Positions 2,991 to 55,674 of a DNA stretch of 64,000 bases are shown one piece after another. The DNA is taken from the NCBI GenBank assembly GCA_030280995.1, contig JASXTE010000003.1, positions 50,200,974 to 50,264,973 on the forward strand. Direction: 5' to 3'. The DNA is from Hemileia vastatrix. Lineage: Eukaryota > Basidiomycota > Pucciniomycetes > Pucciniales > Zaghouaniaceae. The notes under the pieces were generated by a model. It ran no database searches, was not told the origin of the DNA, and was given only the letters and a program-made list of their open reading frames with translations. Numbering within the stretch: position 1 is the stretch's first letter; every line of letters begins with the position of its first letter. A program made the position numbers and the translations under genes.

Positions 2991-3385
2991 CTACACAAAA
3001 GCTGGCTGCCTGCCCTAGCCTCCTCCCACCCCCTTTCCCCACTACCAAATGAAGGAGCAGGCAGGTAGCAAAGCTACCTGCTTTCCTGTAGGGCCACCCA
3101 CTCCCCCCTTCCCTACTTACAAACAACCAGCCAGCCAGAAATGCTGGCTGTCTGGCTGGCTAGGTCTGTCATAGGCCAACCTCCCACCCCCCAACTACAG
3201 AACAAACAATCAAGCAGCCAACAATAGGGGGTATGAATGTTCAGGGATCCGCAATTAAATTAATTGCAGATAAAAATCCTTATACCCCAATTATCTTCCG
3301 CAATTATTTTTCCTAATAATTGTGTTATTAGACACTTTACGTGTCAATGTTCACCTCTTATTTGACATTTTTCTACTCAATTTTT

Positions 3386-3469
3386 CATAACCACATCTTG
3401 GACAACTTTCTGTCATAACCACATGTTGCACAACTTTCTACCATAACCACATCTTGGACTACTCTCTGG
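3386..3469. repeat. Three 28-bp tandem repeats
   Basis: The motif CATAACCACATCTTGGACAA recurs at 3386, 3414 and 3442 with exact 28-bp spacing and a few substitutions. It lies in the interior of the 450-bp TIR element. Confidence 0.8.
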
Positions 3470-3560
3470 ATATGCCTCATGGATGTGATGAGTTTGGGAT
3501 CAGAAATTAGGAATGGAAATTGGGGTATAAGAGGTGGGATAATGCATTATCATGGATTCC

Positions 3561-3590
3561 TTATCCACTAGCCCCGGGGCTAGTGGATAA
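3561..3590. repeat. Perfect 30-bp palindrome
   Basis: Arms TTATCCACTAGCCCC and its exact complement meet at CCCCGGGG with no spacer. It sits in the right half of the 450-bp TIR element. A weaker version (CACTAGCCCCAATACTGGTG) lies at the matching subterminal place in the 49381 transposon. Confidence 0.85.
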
Positions 3591-3765
3591 GAATATTCCA
3601 CAATTAATAATGTCTGATCCCAGAAAAAAAAATTCCTGATCCCTAATTGCAGATCTCTGAACATTGATACCCCCTAATACCTGGCTACCTGACTATGGCC
3701 TCTATCCACCCCCCAAAAAAAGGCAAAATAACCAGCTAGCTAGTGATAGATGTCTGGCTGGCATA

Positions 3766-3810
3766 TGCTCTCAGAATAATCACCAAACAATGGAAGCTCC
3801 TCCATATTTT
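3766..3810 (+). pseudogene. C-terminal tip of a Tet/JBP-like oxygenase gene
   Basis: The plus strand encodes SQNNHQTMEAPPYF, matching the last residues (SSKDNHQTTKDPPG) of the Tet-like gene read on the minus strand at 50964-51478. The following 630 bp also match that gene's downstream module. The rest of the gene to the left is not recognisable, having been replaced by CCAGC-rich DNA and the 450-bp TIR element. Confidence 0.45.
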
Positions 3811-4440
3811 CAATCTTGTCAAGATTTCACTCATTTTGGCTGCTCATTTCAAATAAGTCAAAAGTTAATTAAACAAATCAACAAGGAAATAAAATAAGTT
3901 AAAAGTAATAAATTTAAACAAACTTTAAGTAAATCAAAAAACTATGGGGATTTGTAGAGTCACCAAATATTTATTATTCTTTAATAAATTTTTAATAAAT
4001 AAATCTTCTATCTCAATCTACTAGACTAAAGTAATGGGCCATTGACCTTTTGTTTTACAAGTGGTAATAATGACATGAATAATTTGTTTCATGAGTTTCC
4101 TCTAGCCTATACCTGTGGAGAGTCCCAAAATTTTGTTTCTAGATTTGATCCACATTTTGGCTAGAGGAATTGTCAGTACTTTAAAACTAGTGAAATTAAC
4201 ATATATTAGTTGTTTATATATTAATTTATGTAACTATAATAAATTCTTGTGACTCCCACCTCTTGCTTCCATATAATTTGGGGGGGATATTTTCAAATTA
4301 TCAAATCAGACATGCAAAATTTTTGACTTGAATAAATTTTGTTGTTACCCACCCCTTACTTCAAAAAAATGCTGCAGGGGGGGTATTGCAAAATTTGAAA
4401 CCAGATATTGAATTTTGTTGACTTAAATCAATTTAAAAAT
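3811..4440 (-). repeat. Conserved 3' module of the Tet-bearing transposon (relic copy)
   Basis: This is an inverted copy of 50316-50945. Shared landmarks are TCAAGATTTCACTCATTTTG, the TAAAGTAATGGGCC block at about 4027, the CTCTAGCCTATACCTGTGG block near 4107, and two C-rich or G-rich runs next to TGCAAAATTT near 4270 and 4380. It has no coding frame. Together with the Tet-gene tip it marks a third, very old copy of the Tet-bearing element. Confidence 0.65.
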
Positions 4441-49049: not shown

Positions 49050-49380
49050 TGTCAGCCTAGGTATCCCCAGGACTAAGTAATTCTTATGTTTAAAGTAAGA
49101 TAACGTTATTTACATTAAGCATTTAAATTAAATATAAGGTTAAACTACTTATATATATGGTTAAAATACTTATATATATGGCTATAATACATATATATAT
49201 TATTATTCACTATTATATAACTTATAGTAGTTTAAATAGCTAATTGATATCTTAATAATACTTATTAAGGTGTTAATAGAGTCATAATATATTTATCTTA
49301 AGTGATATTAAGTAATTATAGACATACATAAGCTTATATGTATACATAAACTCATATTCAGTGAAATATGTAGTTATATT
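49050..49380 (+). repeat. Chromovirus 3' LTR, first part
   Basis: TGTCAGCCTAGGTATCCCCA to GTAGTTATATT. A second copy of this part lies at 57325-57594. It continues at 52977 after the inserted DNA transposon. Confidence 0.85.
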
Positions 49381-49688
49381 AGGGGGTGTCAGTTCTGGCA
49401 AATCAGCACTTACAAATCCGCACTTAAATTTGACCAAATCCGCACTTAAATAAGTGCGGATTTCCAAAACACACTAGCCCCAATACTGGTGGATTTCAAA
49501 ATGAAATAAGTCACTTATTTCACTCAAATCCGCACTTTCTCAACCAAAAGTGCTGATTTCACCATCAAGTCCCATTTCACTGATTTGTCAGAATCATCCC
49601 ATTCATACGCAGCACTCCGCAGCATAACACTTCATAACTCAAAACATCGTACATCACTTACATCTTCATATCATATCATATAAGAGTT

Positions 49689-50380
49689 ATGCCTTCCTCA
49701 CTTTCAAATCGTGATAAATTACATAAAGCAATGACTTTCATGGCTCTTGAACTGCTCTTGGACTCTGATTGCGATTCTGATTCTGATCTAGAAGAAGATT
49801 TTGTCTTTTTATCAAAAATGGCCACGAAACGTTACCTTCTTCCCAGAAAGCTCAAGTACTTCATACCCCCAAGTACACCATCCAAACACTTCTTAAACTA
49901 TCTACACCCAGTTTTAGAGAGCTGTTCAGGACTTCTCAGGAATGTTTCCTTAAATTGCTTGAGCTTATTCAGGATCATCCCATATTTCACAATAATTCTC
50001 AAAAAGAACAACAACATCCTTCAATTCAATTGGCCATCACACTATGTCATTTGGGTTCAAATGGTAATGGAGCCGCTTTGAAATGTTTAGAAAATGTCTT
50101 TGATTTAGGGTATGGTTCAGTTAACACTTATACCAAACAATGTATCACTGCCATCAACTCCTTGTAATCTCAACTTCTCACCTGGCCAACAAAAGAAGAG
50201 CGACTTGAATCATTTCAGGTTATGCAAGCAGAGGGCTTCCCAGGATGTATTGGTTTTGTTGATGGTACTGCTATTCCTTTGAGCCAGAAACCTGCTCAAG
50301 GTGGAAACAATTACTTTCACATTCTCGTCAAAAATTTTCACCAAAATATTTACAAGTCAAAAAAAATTCTATATCTGTTT
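49689..50380 (+). pseudogene. PIF/Harbinger-like transposase, C-terminally truncated
   Basis: ATG at 49689 opens MPSSLSNRDKLHKAMTFMAL and an acidic patch (DSDCDSDSDLEED). After a frameshift near 49905 comes FRTSQECFLKLLELIQDHPI, then QLAITLCHLGSNGNGAALKC and VFDLGYGSVNTYTKQCITAI, the helix-turn-helix-like region of DDE_Tnp_4 proteins. A TAA at about 50166 is followed by ESFQVMQAEGFPGCIGFVDG, TAIPLSQKP, which carries the first catalytic Asp. At 50316 homology ends; the second Asp and the Glu are missing. Transposase would cut at the TIRs; this copy cannot. Classification rests on these motifs. Confidence 0.8.
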
Positions 50381-50945
50381 TAAAAAATTTGCAATACTCT
50401 CCCCTGCATTTTATTGAAGCAAGGGGTGGATATCACCAAAATTTTTCTAAGTCATCAATTTCACATGTCAGATTTGAAAATTTGGCAATACCCCCCCCTG
50501 CATTTTATTGAAGTAAGTGGTGGAAGTCATCTAAATTTAATATAATTACGTAAATTATTAAATAAATATCTAATATATATCAATTTACCTAGTTTAAATT
50601 AATGACAATCCCTTAAGCCAAAATGCAAATCAAATCTAGAAACAAAAGTTTGGGACTTTCCACAGGTATAGGCTAGAGGAACCCCATGAAACAAATAAAT
50701 GTTATCATGATTACCATTTATACAACACCAGGTCGTGGGCCCATTACTTTAGTTGAGGAAATTGATGCATAAAAATATTTATTAAAAATTTACAAAAAAA
50801 TATAAAATTTTCGATGACAACTCTAATCCCCATACTTTTTGGATCTAAATAAAGTTTTTTTAAATCGATTAACTTTACCTTCTTTCATTACCTTATTGAT
50901 TCTTTGAATCAACTTATGACTGATTTGAAATGAGCAACAAAAATG
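50316..50945 (+). repeat. Conserved module between transposase and Tet-like gene
   Basis: Non-coding, and matched in inverse orientation at 3811-4440. It has two similar sub-blocks (TTTGCAATACTCTCCCCTGC at 50388, TTTGGCAATACCCCCCCCTG at 50481). In both copies its far end abuts the 3' end of the Tet-like gene, so it belongs to the element rather than being a later insertion; it could hold that gene's terminator. Confidence 0.7.
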
Positions 50946-50963
50946 TGTTAAATCTTGACAGGA

Positions 50964-51478
50964 TTACAAACCAGGAGGATCTTTGGTCGTTTGATGATTA
51001 TCCTTAGAAGAATTCCAAATAGTTTCGATGATACCATTTCCCAAACCAAAATCAATGATGCACCGGTGGTCTGGAAAATATAAACCGTGTCATTTGATTT
51101 TAGCTGGAGATGGTATTGGTTGGCCAGTAATTGGTTTGATATATGAGAATATACCAAAAGTAAGAAAATTGGTGTCCTTGGTATCGGTGTGAATTTTATT
51201 GTGAAATCCAGAATGAGTGATAATAACATTAGAAAATAAAAGATATTCGTGGCTGATATCTTCCCATTTGGAGTCACACCAATTTTGTATTCCAACTTTT
51301 GTTGCAAGTTCATGATTTTTTTCAAATGCTTTATTACAGTGCTTTTTGAGTCGAAGAGCAAGAAAAGAGTTAAAGGAAGGTAGAGTGTCCCATAAGCGAA
51401 AATCTTCATCTTTTTGAGCTTTAGTGATATTCTTGAGCAACGAATATATGCCTATATACTTGAAATTCCTAGATAATA
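50964..51478 (-). pseudogene. Tet/JBP-like 2OG-Fe(II) oxygenase, C-terminal exon
   Basis: The minus strand reads NFKYIGIYSLLKNITKAQKD, ALRLKKHCNKAFEKNHELAT, VGIQNWCDSKWEDISHEYLL, then SNVIITHSGFHNKIHTDTKD, where HTD is the iron-binding HxD, and FGIFSYIKPITGQPIPSP. A TGA (51090-51092) follows PAKIK; past it HGLYFPDHRCIIDFGLGNGI, IETIWNSSKDNHQTT supplies the distal His. This order matches the Tet/JBP-type oxygenases that are expanded in basidiomycetes, which oxidise 5-methylcytosine or thymine in related families. Substrate here is unknown. Upstream exons are likely: splice donors on the minus strand at about 52055 (TCAAG|GTAAGT) and 52262 (TCCAG|GTAAGT) are conserved in the second copy. One stop codon makes this copy doubtful. 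Confidence 0.75.
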
Positions 51479-51499
51479 ATCATATAAGAGTTTCAGAAT

Positions 51500-51910
51500 C
51501 CTTATCCTCTAAATATGCAATATAAAAATGTGAAATAAGACAAGTGAAATTTGGAAAAAAGGCTCAACTTCAAAGGTCAAAATCTCAGCAACCACTGAAC
51601 CTAATTCAAACCTGTTTGTGGGAAATAAAAGATATGCTTTAGTAGAATCTTCAGTTAAAGGACATGTGATTTAAATAAACCTAACCCTAATTTGTTACAT
51701 AAAAAAATGAAATAAAAATTTAAATTGGGAAAAAAAAGGCTCAACTTTAACGGTCAATATCTCAGAAACCACTGAATCAAATTCAAATCTGTTTGTGGGA
51801 AATAAAAGGTAGCCTTCAGGAGAATCTTCAGTAAAAAGAAAATTAGATTTGAATAAACCTAACCCTAATTCCGAGTCTGATTTTCAAAATTTTACAAAAA
51901 CTTGAAAAGT
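51500..51910. repeat. Two tandem ~185-bp repeats upstream of the Tet-like gene
   Basis: AAAAAAGGCTCAACTT at about 51560 and 51727 opens each unit; TTTAAATAAACCTAACCCTAA or TTGAATAAACCTAACCCTAA closes it. CCTAACCCTAA equals nearly two telomere-type repeats. Three to four copies of the same unit lie in the second element at 54250-54910. Confidence 0.75.
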
Positions 51911-52976
51911 GGTAATGAAGATGAGATCAAAAGGAGTTTTATAAGTTCACTGTTATCCAGATAAGAGTCATAAATATATTTAAGTATGAAATTTTCATAA
52001 AAGGAATGAGATATCATATAGGCATGAAAAAAAGGAGATGAAACTTACCTTGATTGAAAAGTAGGAAAAATAGAGTGAGAAAGATTGATGTTGGAATTGT
52101 GGGGAAATTGAATATGGAGTAAAAGGTTAATTATACCATTGAAATCCAAAATAACCACTTACAAAAAAAATTTAGATAAAAAAATAAAATAAACAGAAAA
52201 AAACAAAAAAAATTATAATAGTAATCAAAAAATCAAAAAAAAAAAAGAATAAAGTGACTTACCTGGAGAGATGAGATGACAAAATGAATGAAACCAAATT
52301 GTTTGAGGGATGTTGGAGGAGAATAGGAAAAGGATATGAGGGATGAATGAAAAAAAAAATCACTGACAAAATATGTGATTTCAGAAAATATGCAATTTCA
52401 TGTTGAGCTGGTGAAAGAAAACCAATGAGCCATCCAAAAAAAAAAAATTCACCGTAAATTCCAAAAAAAATGAATATGCAACAAACCAAAATACCAACCC
52501 AAGTGAATGAAGTACACAAAGAGGACATTTGGAGAGTACAAAATGGTATGGGAAAGAAAGGGATGATGTGGCCAACATGTGGTTTTGAAAAAAAAAATCT
52601 CAAAAAAAGTGCTGATTTGAGGTCAGAACTGACACCCATAGAAAAAAGATTAAGAAGTAGAAGAAATAAGTAAAAAAGAATGTAAACATGCCTTGTCAAA
52701 ATATTGAAAATGTCAGGAAGGGGTGTGTGCCGAGGATTGATGGGTAGGTAGCGAGGAAGGTCAGTGTGTCACATGTGACAGGGATGGGGTAAGAAAGGAA
52801 GGGATGTTTTGTGGCCAAAATGTGGTTGTGAAAAAAAATGGGAAAAAAGTGCTGATTTGAGGTCATAACTGACACCCTTTTTTGAAATAAGTGACTTTTT
52901 TGCAAAATTTAAGTGCTGATTTGGTTTGAAGTCCGCACTTAAGTTAAGTGCGGATTTGCCAGAACTGACACCCCCT
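51911..52976. other. Right arm of the Tet-bearing transposon
   Basis: Non-coding apart from the two conserved minus-strand splice donors described under the Tet-like gene, so it likely holds its promoter and first exons. Near the TIR, GTGCTGATTTGAGGTCAGAA is repeated at about 52610 and 52849 as subterminal repeats. A long hydrophobic frame at 52259-52699 is not conserved in the second copy. Confidence 0.6.
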
Positions 52977-53844
52977 ATTATGTATATTTAGGTCTATAAA
53001 TAGGTTTTAATCTTTTAATTTTCTATTAGCTTTATTTTTCTGCATATTTTAGGTCTTATGGATGTATTATGTGACTCACAATGCCTACAAAAGCATATAC
53101 ACCTTTTTCAGGTTCATATATCCAGTTTGGACAACTTAATCTGCTTCCTTTGATGTATTTTTACAGATTTATGGTTCGGGATATGATTACTGGGTTAATA
53201 GGGATGCTTGGGGATATTTTTGGGGGCTTGGACAGTTAATTTGGTTCCTTTATATTCTTTGGGTTTCATTATATACTCTTTAGGTGAGTTATTTTACCTG
53301 TTTCTTTATGGTATCCACTTTTATCTGTTCATTTTATTTATGGTTTGGCTCTGTGGTATCATTAATTGTGATGGAGGGTCCTTACTGAATGTCTGGGTGT
53401 TGAATTTTCTTGAATTGGATGCCATAGGCAGGTGATGGGCCTTCACAGTTATGTAATTGCTGGGGATAGCAAGGACATCATCTGGATTGAAGGTCTGTGC
53501 ACTCCAGCGGATTTTGGTATAAGTAATGGAGGATTTGACGGGTTATTGGACATCACTTACTTACTATACATTAAAAAAACTCTATTAAACAATTATTATC
53601 ATATATATATATATTATAAAGAATTTATAAATTGATATTATTTTTATATAAGCTATAACTATATTTTATTCATCTATTTTCCACCACTAGCACACATAAA
53701 AATCAAAGTATTGTGAGTTTATATTGAGAATAACTATTTTATTAGTCTTCCCCTGAGGTTTAATCACTAAATCATTTATCAATAAGTACTTGAATCATTA
53801 ATTCTTACTATTGAATCATACCTAGATACTATCACACACTGACA
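52977..53844 (+). repeat. Chromovirus 3' LTR, second part
   Basis: Continuation of the LTR to CACACTGACA. The stretch 53160-53844 is repeated inverted at 30275-30965. Confidence 0.78.
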
Positions 53845-53859
53845 ATACATTTATGATCC

Positions 53860-54200
53860 AGAAAGTAAAGTCCTTGGCTTTGATTTTAGTTGGTGAAGGG
53901 TTTTGGTCTTCCAGTAATAGGATTGATATAACAGAAAAGCCAAAAAGTAAGCATATTAGAATTAGTTTTTTCAACATGGCTCTGGCTATGAAATCCTCCA
54001 TATTTGATTATAACATTAGAATATAAGACAATCATTGCTGAGTTAAACCCATTCTATATTTGTCTGATTAGGAAGTCCAGCTTTCTTGGCCAGTTAATGA
54101 TTAAATTGAAATGCAAAAATATATAATTTTTTAAGCAATTTGCCAGAAATAATTGAGTAATCCTAAGATTTTGGACATAAAAGCCTAGATAATCATAAGG
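53860..54200 (-). pseudogene. Tet/JBP-like oxygenase relic
   Basis: Minus strand: FNSAMIVLYSNVIIKYGGFH, SQSHVEKTNSNMLTFWLF, CYINPITGRPKPFTN, then GLYFLDHKC after a stop. It matches the exon at 50964-51478, but the iron-binding HTD has become HVE, and two stops are present. Dead copy. Confidence 0.7.
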
Positions 54201-54229: not shown

Positions 54230-54920
54230 TATGCAATATAAAAAGATCAAATAAATTAAGTGAAATTTAGAGAAAAGGATCAACTGTAAAGGTCAATATC
54301 TAAGCCAAAACTTGGCCAAATTCAAATCTGTTTATGTGAAATGAAAGATAGGCTTCAGTAAAATCTTCAGCTAAAGAACATAAGATTTGAATAAACCTAG
54401 CTCTAATTCTGGCTCTGCTTTTCAAAATTGTACAAAAACTTGAAAATTGACAATGAAAATTAAAACAAGATGGAGATATAAGCCTAGTTAAACATCAGAA
54501 GTGTTTTAGAAGCCTTATTCTCTAATTATGCAATATAAAAACATAAAATAAATTGGGAGAAATTAGGAAAAAAGGCTCAACTTTTAATGTCAAAATTGTA
54601 GCAACCACTGAACCAAATTCAAACCAATTTTTGTGAAATGAAAGATAGGTTTCAGGAGAGTCTTCAGTTAAAGGAAATGTGATTTAAATAAACCTAACCC
54701 TAATTCAATTCATAAAAATATGAAATAAAAAAATTAAATTGGGAAAAAAGGCTCATATTTAAAGGTTAATATCTCAGCAACCGCTAAACAAAATTTATAT
54801 CTGTTTGTGAGAAATCAAAGGTAGTCTTTAGGAGAATTTTAAGTCAAAAGGACATTAGATTTGAATAAACCTAACCCTAATTTTGAGTCTTATTTTCAAA
54901 ATTTTACAAAAACCTGAAAA
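54230..54920. repeat. Tandem repeats of the second Tet-bearing element
   Basis: Units beginning near AAAAGGATCAACTG, AAAAAGGCTCAACTTTTAAT and AAAAAAGGCTCATATTTAAA (54275, 54570, 54745) and ending in AAACCTAACCCTAAT (54690, 54875). They correspond to the two units at 51500-51910, with more copies here. Confidence 0.7.
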
Positions 54921-55674
54921 GTTGTAATAGAGATGAGAGCAAGAAGAGTTTAATAAGTCCACTGTTATCCAGATAAGAGTCATGCATATACTTATATATT
55001 AAATTTCATAGAAGGAAATAGATATCATATAGGCATGAAAAAAGGATATGAAACTTACCTTGATTAAAAAGTAGGAAAAATTGAGTGTGAAAGATTGATG
55101 TTTGAATTTGGCAGAAATTGAATATGGAGTGAATGAAATGCATAAAGAATGTGAAATGTATGTGTTTTGCTGACATGGAACCCAAAAAAAGTGAAATAGG
55201 GGAAAGGGGGATAATTACCATGCCAAGGAGGGATGAAGAGTAGGGTGATGGAGCTAAAAAAGAAAGAAAAGAGGGAGAGAAAATAAGGTTAATTTTACCA
55301 TTAAAATCAAAAACAAATACTTACAAAAAAAGTTAGATGCAAAAAAAAAATTATAATTAGCAATCAAAAAATCCAAAAAATGAATCAAATGACTTACCTG
55401 GAGAGATGAAATGAGAAAATAAATAAAGCTAAGTTGTTTGAGGGATGTTTGAAAAGAGGAGGAAAGGATATGAGGGAGAATGAAAAAATAAACAGCTAAA
55501 ATTTATGCAATTGCAGAAAATATGAGATTTCATGTTGAGCTGGTGAATGAAAACGAATAATACATGCAAAAAAGAGACATTCAGCGTAAATTCAAAATAA
55601 AAATGATTATGAAAAAAACAAAAACACCAAACCAAGTGAATGAAGCACAAAAGTTGAATATTTGGAGAGTATAA

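What the first reader, a model, noticed from the sequence alone, without database searches (positions are those of the whole stretch)
49381..52976. A PIF/Harbinger-like TIR transposon that carries a Tet/JBP-type oxygenase gene
Clean inverted repeats and a 3-bp duplication bound one unit that holds a DDE_Tnp_4-like transposase on one strand and a 2OG-Fe(II) oxygenase with HTD and NHQTT motifs on the other. In basidiomycetes Tet/JBP genes have been linked to another transposon class (Kyakuja-Dileera-Zisupton). A Harbinger-like carrier would be a different pairing. An element that brings its own base-oxidising enzyme could counter host cytosine methylation; that role is inference.
Basis: partly seen in the sequence, partly recalled or inferred. 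Interest (0 to 1): 0.87.

Follow-up and report, generated by a model that had tools for sequence, protein, structure and literature searches.

The report
Mosaic transposon with broken oxygenase
This is one copy of a common, non-self-moving transposon in what looks like a rust fungus, stitched together from pieces of several related transposons and carrying a broken fragment of a Tet-like oxygenase gene, while relatives elsewhere in the genome carry longer versions of that gene.

Summary
The unit is real: ends 49381 and 52976, inverted ends (24 bp perfect), 3-bp duplication ATT supported by unoccupied sites. It is not an element with two working genes but one copy of a non-autonomous mosaic family, C (a junction 37-mer occurs at 1,363 places). 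Its ends and transposase exon-1 piece match a 2.6-kb TET-minus Harbinger, A; its Tet-like piece matches a different, 7.4-kb TET-plus Harbinger, B; a middle block matches DNA beside a third Tet-like relic. 19 of 19 copies examined share a transposase stop and 18 of 19 an oxygenase stop, so the lesions predate the spread, presumably driven in trans. The Harbinger-TET pairing is published (Kojima 2025, PMC12730594: PHISTA, TA duplications). Apparently new: 3-bp AWT duplications supported by empty sites, and a frozen TET-swap mosaic.

The parts
49378..49380 (.). Left copy of the 3-bp target duplication (ATT)
49381..49404 (+). Left TIR, 24 nt perfect inverted match to the right end, followed by subterminal repeats to about 49463
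49381..50320 (+). Block 1, from the A/D Harbinger lineage (96.9% to A): left end plus transposase exon 1
49638..50320 (+). Transposase exon-1 piece. In the window copy it lies in two frames (49638-50081 and 49787 onward) with an in-frame stop at 50165-50167 shared by 19 of 19 copies. The exon with the later catalytic residues is absent
50338..51466 (-). Block 2, from the B lineage (92.6%): Tet-like oxygenase exon and its 3' flank
50826..51467 (-). Tet/JBP-like oxygenase piece (PF20515). N-terminal part absent; in-frame stop at 51087-51089 in 18 of 19 copies
51468..52123 (.). Block 3, 84.6% to window 54483-55133, DNA next to another Tet-like relic
52162..52533 (.). Block 4, 84.7% to the B element between its TET and transposase genes
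52552..52976 (.). Block 5, A/D lineage right end (52640-52976 94% to A; 52552-52637 84%)
52953..52976 (-). Right TIR
52977..52979 (.). Right copy of the 3-bp target duplication (ATT)

Best explanation
The window element is one copy of a non-autonomous, mosaic PIF/Harbinger-type family (C). Its ends come from the A/D Harbinger lineage and its interior from a B-type TET-plus Harbinger and a third TET-bearing sequence. The mosaic most likely formed when a broken or excised A/D copy was repaired by template switching into TET-plus relatives (inferred). Both gene pieces were already inactive in the common ancestor of the copies sampled (shown by shared stops and the missing exon). It then spread to about 1,400 copies because transposase from A or D copies recognises its ends (inferred from the same termini and the same AWT target duplication). 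Its oxygenase piece is a passenger. Where TET is fuller (D, probably B) its divergence looks constrained, and it most likely oxidises 5-methylcytosine to relieve silencing (inferred from family knowledge).
For: Mosaic map: ends 94-97% to A; TET block 92.6% to B (93.5% in copy L020), but only 82% to D. Copy number 1,363 by junction 37-mer, control 0. Shared stops 19 of 19 and 18 of 19. No second transposase exon in the C copies mapped against A, L020 and the window's. A is a 2,556-bp element with the same TIR, equal ATT duplications in 2 of 2 copies and two long transposase frames, 99.9% between the two copies fetched. Empty sites. B-D TET dN/dS 0.12-0.13, like the B-A and B-D transposase at 0.13-0.14.
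Against: Mobilisation by A or D is inferred; no transposition was observed. The 19 copies were chosen by identity to the window's left 60-mer, so the stop counts describe that sample; the genome-wide count of the stop could not be run (search machine busy). L027 lacks the oxygenase stop and has a 218-aa frame, but still no N-terminal part. Nested insertion plus deletion is not excluded as the route to the mosaic. The one D copy read has a broken transposase frame, so a fully intact autonomous partner with these ends and TET was not shown; A has long transposase frames.
Confidence: 0.85

Rival explanations
1. The unit is a working transposon that brings its own base-oxidising enzyme.
For: Tet-like piece with the HTD motif; both pieces lie inside the TIRs in all 19 copies compared.
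Against: Stops shared by 19 of 19 (transposase) and 18 of 19 (oxygenase); second transposase exon and oxygenase N-terminal part absent.
Confidence: 0.04
2. C is a plain internal-deletion and decay product of one autonomous element that had A/D ends and a B-like TET, so there was no exchange between families.
For: D has the same end type and the same gene set as B, so such an ancestor is plausible; A looks like a deletion derivative of D.
Against: C's TET block is 93% to B but 82% to D, while its ends are 97% to A and 96% to D, and its transposase piece is only 71% to B. The B block is inverted relative to the A ends. A third source supplies the middle.
Confidence: 0.12
3. A B-type element jumped into an A copy, and later deletions left fragments.
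For: Nested or tandem arrangements of the family occur (L012, L018).
Against: No B-type terminus remains inside the window copy: a scan for the B-type end (up to 4 mismatches) found none within 49381-52976.
Confidence: 0.15

Closest known systems
PHISTA, TET-plus Harbinger families of Puccinia and Austropuccinia (Kojima 2025, PMC12730594)
   Same: Harbinger-type transposase, Tet/JBP oxygenase of a rust-fungus kind and a third protein in one TIR element (true of D and B here).
   Different: PHISTA is defined by TA duplications; here empty sites support 3-bp AWT with ends A...T. Kojima reports no Myb/SANT domain in PHISTA's third proteins; here the third protein gives a sub-threshold Myb/SANT-like hit. 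The window element itself is a dead mosaic, not a TET-plus autonomous family.
PIF/Harbinger elements of the Nuwa kind (as described in PMC12730594, section 14)
   Same: DDE_Tnp_4 transposase, 3-bp duplication, and in D and B a possible Myb/SANT-like second protein.
   Different: D and B also carry TET; placement by transposase tree was not tested.
Non-autonomous DNA transposons carrying captured gene pieces (the Pack-TIR kind; recalled)
   Same: Intact TIRs, no working transposase in the copies sampled, high copy number, interior from other DNA.
   Different: The interior comes from other TET-bearing sequences, not visibly from host genes.
Kyakuja-Dileera-Zisupton TET-plus transposons (Iyer et al., as cited in PMC12730594)
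   Same: TET gene with a transposase in basidiomycetes.
   Different: Different transposase class (recalled); 8-bp duplications are given for the Dileera example in PMC12730594.

Membership tests
PIF/Harbinger superfamily | DDE_Tnp_4 transposase | tested here: met
   Met for relatives A (2.2e-26), D (8.4e-27) and B (3.3e-24). The window piece has no Pfam DDE hit of its own but is 97% DNA-identical to A exon 1.
PIF/Harbinger superfamily | 3-bp target duplication | tested here: met
   17 of 19 copies equal; six empty sites, five without mismatch at the junction. The trinucleotide is AWT; canonical TWA is recalled, not tested.
PIF/Harbinger superfamily | Second gene with Myb/SANT-like domain | tested here: inconclusive
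   Not among the window element's mapped blocks. In B and D PF13837 at E 0.011 and 0.0067, both below the curated cut-off.
PHISTA (Kojima 2025) | TA target duplication | tested here: not met
   Empty sites fit a 3-bp AWT duplication with ends A...T; a TA reading would leave three extra bases in the empty site.
PHISTA (Kojima 2025) | Carries TET with transposase and a third protein | tested here: met
   For D (22 of 23 scored regions cover all three genes; open frames not checked beyond one copy) and B. Not for the window family, which holds pieces only.
PHISTA (Kojima 2025) | Transposase falls in the PHISTA clade | not tested
Tet/JBP 2OG-Fe(II) oxygenases | Tet-like domain profile | tested here: met
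   PF20515: window piece 2.8e-17, B 2.4e-31, D 2.7e-31.
Tet/JBP 2OG-Fe(II) oxygenases | HxD...H iron triad | tested here: inconclusive
   HxD aligned in all four sequences of A1 and all eight of A3; the later His lies beyond the window piece's stop and was not assigned by structure.
Tet/JBP 2OG-Fe(II) oxygenases | Fold like known TET enzymes | tested here: inconclusive
   Low-confidence models of two homologs (pLDDT 46.5 and 59.4). CMD1 ranks first for one, E 1.5e-3; for the other CcTET ranks second, E 6.1e-3, after PHD1 at 8.7e-4. Several other 2OG oxygenases score alike.
Tet/JBP 2OG-Fe(II) oxygenases | Oxidises 5-methylcytosine | not testable with these tools
   Needs an assay or base-resolution modification data.
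Non-autonomous TIR transposon | Intact ends and duplications but no functional transposase | tested here: met
   Stop in 19 of 19 copies sampled; second exon not found in the copy mapped against A (L020) or in the window copy; high copy number.

The most novel reading that the evidence does not exclude
In this genome TET acts as a swappable anti-silencing cassette and a public good. TET-plus Harbingers (D, B) pay for it and exchange it by recombination. TET-minus (A) and TET-dead (C) derivatives with the same end type ride on both the transposase and the demethylation made by TET-plus copies and may outnumber them; C is a caught intermediate of cassette exchange.
Probability: 0.2. Interest if true: 0.7.

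Novelty: new variant of a known kind. Interest (0 to 1): 0.48.

Why it matters
Kojima 2025 shows that Tet/JBP genes move between rust transposon families but leaves the route open ('passively transferred'). Family C is a mosaic in which the boundaries of such a transfer can be read, in over a thousand copies. The D/A/C set gives a natural comparison within one genome (TET-plus, TET-less and TET-dead elements with the same end type) that makes the 'TET protects its transposon from methylation' hypothesis directly testable with methylation and expression data. The empty sites also indicate that TET-plus Harbingers of fungi are not all TA-duplicating.

Tried and rejected
Rejected: the idea, held mid-session, that the TET piece is dead everywhere. 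The genome profile search showed open 218-219-aa exons; the five fetched turned out to be another, larger element (B), not C. Rejected: a TA duplication (empty sites). Rejected: an intron as the cause of the oxygenase stop; copy L027 and elements B and D run through that place in the same frame. Led nowhere: protein search with the 129-aa piece (none); PDB sequence searches (only weak, unrelated hits); structure models of low confidence.

Full report
What was checked. The window lies on contig C631 of a 747.6-Mb assembly of 791 contigs. Of nine Tet-like relatives found by a profile of four sequences, five carry source names: Austropuccinia psidii (1), Puccinia striiformis (2, one of them without a Pfam domain) and P. 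sorghi (2), at 26-38% identity to D's frame; the other four are unnamed. The host is therefore probably a rust fungus; its species is unknown to me.

The element. The ends are 49381 and 52976, with a 24-nt perfect inverted match. The left 60 nt recur at 40 scored places (154 first-look candidates), the window's own included: 39 at 100% and one at 98%. I fetched 20 of the other 39. 18 of 20 hold a full copy of 3.71-3.77 kb; L012 is a nested or tandem arrangement and L024 has no right end in the stretch; both were dropped from later counts. The window copy is shorter (3,596 bp) mainly because it lacks about 150 bp near 52122 that the 18 others have. Mean pairwise identity of the 19 copies (18 plus the window) is 98.8%.

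Target duplication. All 19 copies have AAT or ATT on both sides; the two sides agree in 17 of 19, with L009 and L014 the exceptions. Because the element could be read as GGGGG...CCCCC flanked by TA, I aligned the joined flanks of six copies to unoccupied paralogous sites. Five fit a single 3-bp target without mismatch at the junction and one (L019) fits with one mismatch. The element therefore begins with A and ends with T and makes a 3-bp AWT duplication. The same duplication flanks A (2 of 2) and D (1 of 1), and B (3 of the 5 fetched, the 3 in which both ends could be found).

State of the genes. The 129-aa frame at 51090-51479(-) hits PF20515, Tet-like 2OG-Fe(II) oxygenase, E 2.8e-17. The transposase pieces give no DDE hit of their own. 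Across 19 copies the transposase piece meets the same stop in 19 and the oxygenase piece the same stop in 18; L027 has a longer, 218-aa frame. Insertions or deletions inside the pieces add further breaks in some copies. The shared lesions predate the spread of these copies. One caution: they were picked by identity to the window's left end.

Where the pieces come from. A profile search of the genome with PF20515 gave 10,849 first-look candidates, 150 scored. By my count 26 of the 150 rows show the same C-terminal exon as an open 218-219-aa frame without stops. I fetched 5 of these 26. They are not C but element B: 7.37-7.39 kb in the 3 with both ends found, with TIR AGGGGGTATCAATGTTGAC. Among those 3, the DDE transposase is open over 454 aa in one and interrupted in two. 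The Tet-like exon is open in all 5; an upstream Tet frame, in another reading frame, was listed in 3 of 5 (an intron or a frameshift, left unresolved). A third protein gives a sub-threshold Myb/SANT-like match. A search with PF13359 (7,945 candidates, 150 scored) is dominated by one class, a 193-aa frame matching profile 17-158: about 107 of 150 rows by my count, 71 of them with one identical score. The two of these I fetched are element A: 2,556 bp, the window's TIR, two transposase frames (230 and 193 aa), no TET, 99.9% identical to each other. A third fetch, chosen because a transposase row and a TET row lay 2.3 kb apart, is element D. That comparison used 75 of 150 TET rows and 36 of 150 DDE rows and found 2 such pairs. 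D is 6.44 kb with window-type ends, an A-like transposase (its exon-1 frame broken in this copy), a 347-aa Tet-like frame (PF20515, 2.7e-31) and the third gene. With D as a query (13,837 candidates), 23 regions were scored. 16, the query's own place included, align over nearly the whole element in one piece at 93-94% (self 100%). Six more do so in two pieces; one of these (C34) lacks query 2076-2458, which lies between the transposase and TET genes. One (C19:6042834) is partial. So 22 of 23 cover transposase, TET and the third gene together. Five of the 23 also appear among the 150 rows; four of those five show no stop in the Tet match. Whether any D copy has every frame open was not tested.

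The mosaic. In window coordinates: 49381-50320 is A/D (96.9% to A), 50338-51466 is B (92.6%; TET exon and 3' flank), 51468-52123 matches window 54483-55133 (84.6%), next to another Tet-like relic at 53838-54135, 52162-52533 is B (84.7%; also 77% to window 55285-55674), and 52640-52976 is A (94%). In another C copy (L020) the TET block is 93.5% to B and 81.7% to D, while the left end is 97.2% to A and 96.1% to D. The B block runs inverted relative to the A ends. A 37-mer across the first junction occurs 702 + 661 = 1,363 times with up to two mismatches, and 0 times in the reversed-pattern control. So C is a high-copy non-autonomous family built from at least three related sequences. Movement in trans by A or D transposase is inferred from shared ends and the shared target rule.

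Selection and decay (NG86 counts, no significance test). For the TET exon, B (three copies, each against D) gives dN/dS 0.12-0.13 with dS 1.04-1.09. The transposase second part gives 0.127 (A-B3) and 0.135 (D-B3), with dS near 2. The third gene gives 0.21 (B3-D, dS 2.25). One C copy (L027) against B3 gives 0.42 and against D 0.15. Close pairs are looser or noisy: four B-B pairs 0.23-0.68, A-D transposase 0.37 (part 2) and 1.06 (exon 1, 18 differences). So TET in the TET-plus lineages has diverged under constraint about as strict as on the transposase, and the single C comparison suggests relaxation. In C, C-to-T and G-to-A changes at CpG run at 0.107 and 0.082 per site and copy, against 0.002-0.003 at other C and G sites. 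That is what methylated, deaminating CpGs would give; methylation itself was not measured.

Known or new. Kojima 2025 (PMC12730594; abstract, sections 6, 14, 23, 25, 34 and passages read) already reports TET-plus Harbinger families, named PHISTA, in five Puccinia species and Austropuccinia psidii, and infers transfer of TET between transposons. What I did not find in the listings of the four paper searches run or in the parts of that paper read is a TET mosaic family of this kind, or TET-plus Harbingers with 3-bp duplications supported by empty sites. These searches cover open-licence PMC papers only, and the paper's supplements and figures were not seen.

Limits. Fold comparisons rest on low-confidence models and add little beyond Pfam.

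Noticed in passing
window 53838-54135 (-) and 54483-55674: A second, more diverged Tet-like relic (44-49% aa to D's TET) with adjacent DNA 77-85% identical to the middle of the window element; no ORF over 104 aa there.
   Followed up: partly
window 3226-3675 and 3706-3951 (+): A 450-bp MITE-like unit with B-type ends, beside a third Tet-like relic (50% aa to D's TET).
   Followed up: no
whole genome (G000): Very large Tet-like expansion: 10,849 first-look candidates for PF20515, all 150 scored rows over the curated cut-off, in several frame classes. Only seven of these 150 places were read.
   Followed up: partly
L039:2340-4895 and L040:2273-4828: A TET-minus 2.56-kb Harbinger, 99.9% identical between two contigs, apparently a recent burst and probably a deletion derivative of D.
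   Followed up: partly
L020:2089-2938 (window 51468 to about 52162): Two direct repeats of about 170 bp (84% alike) inside the middle block of C; origin and role unknown.
   Followed up: no
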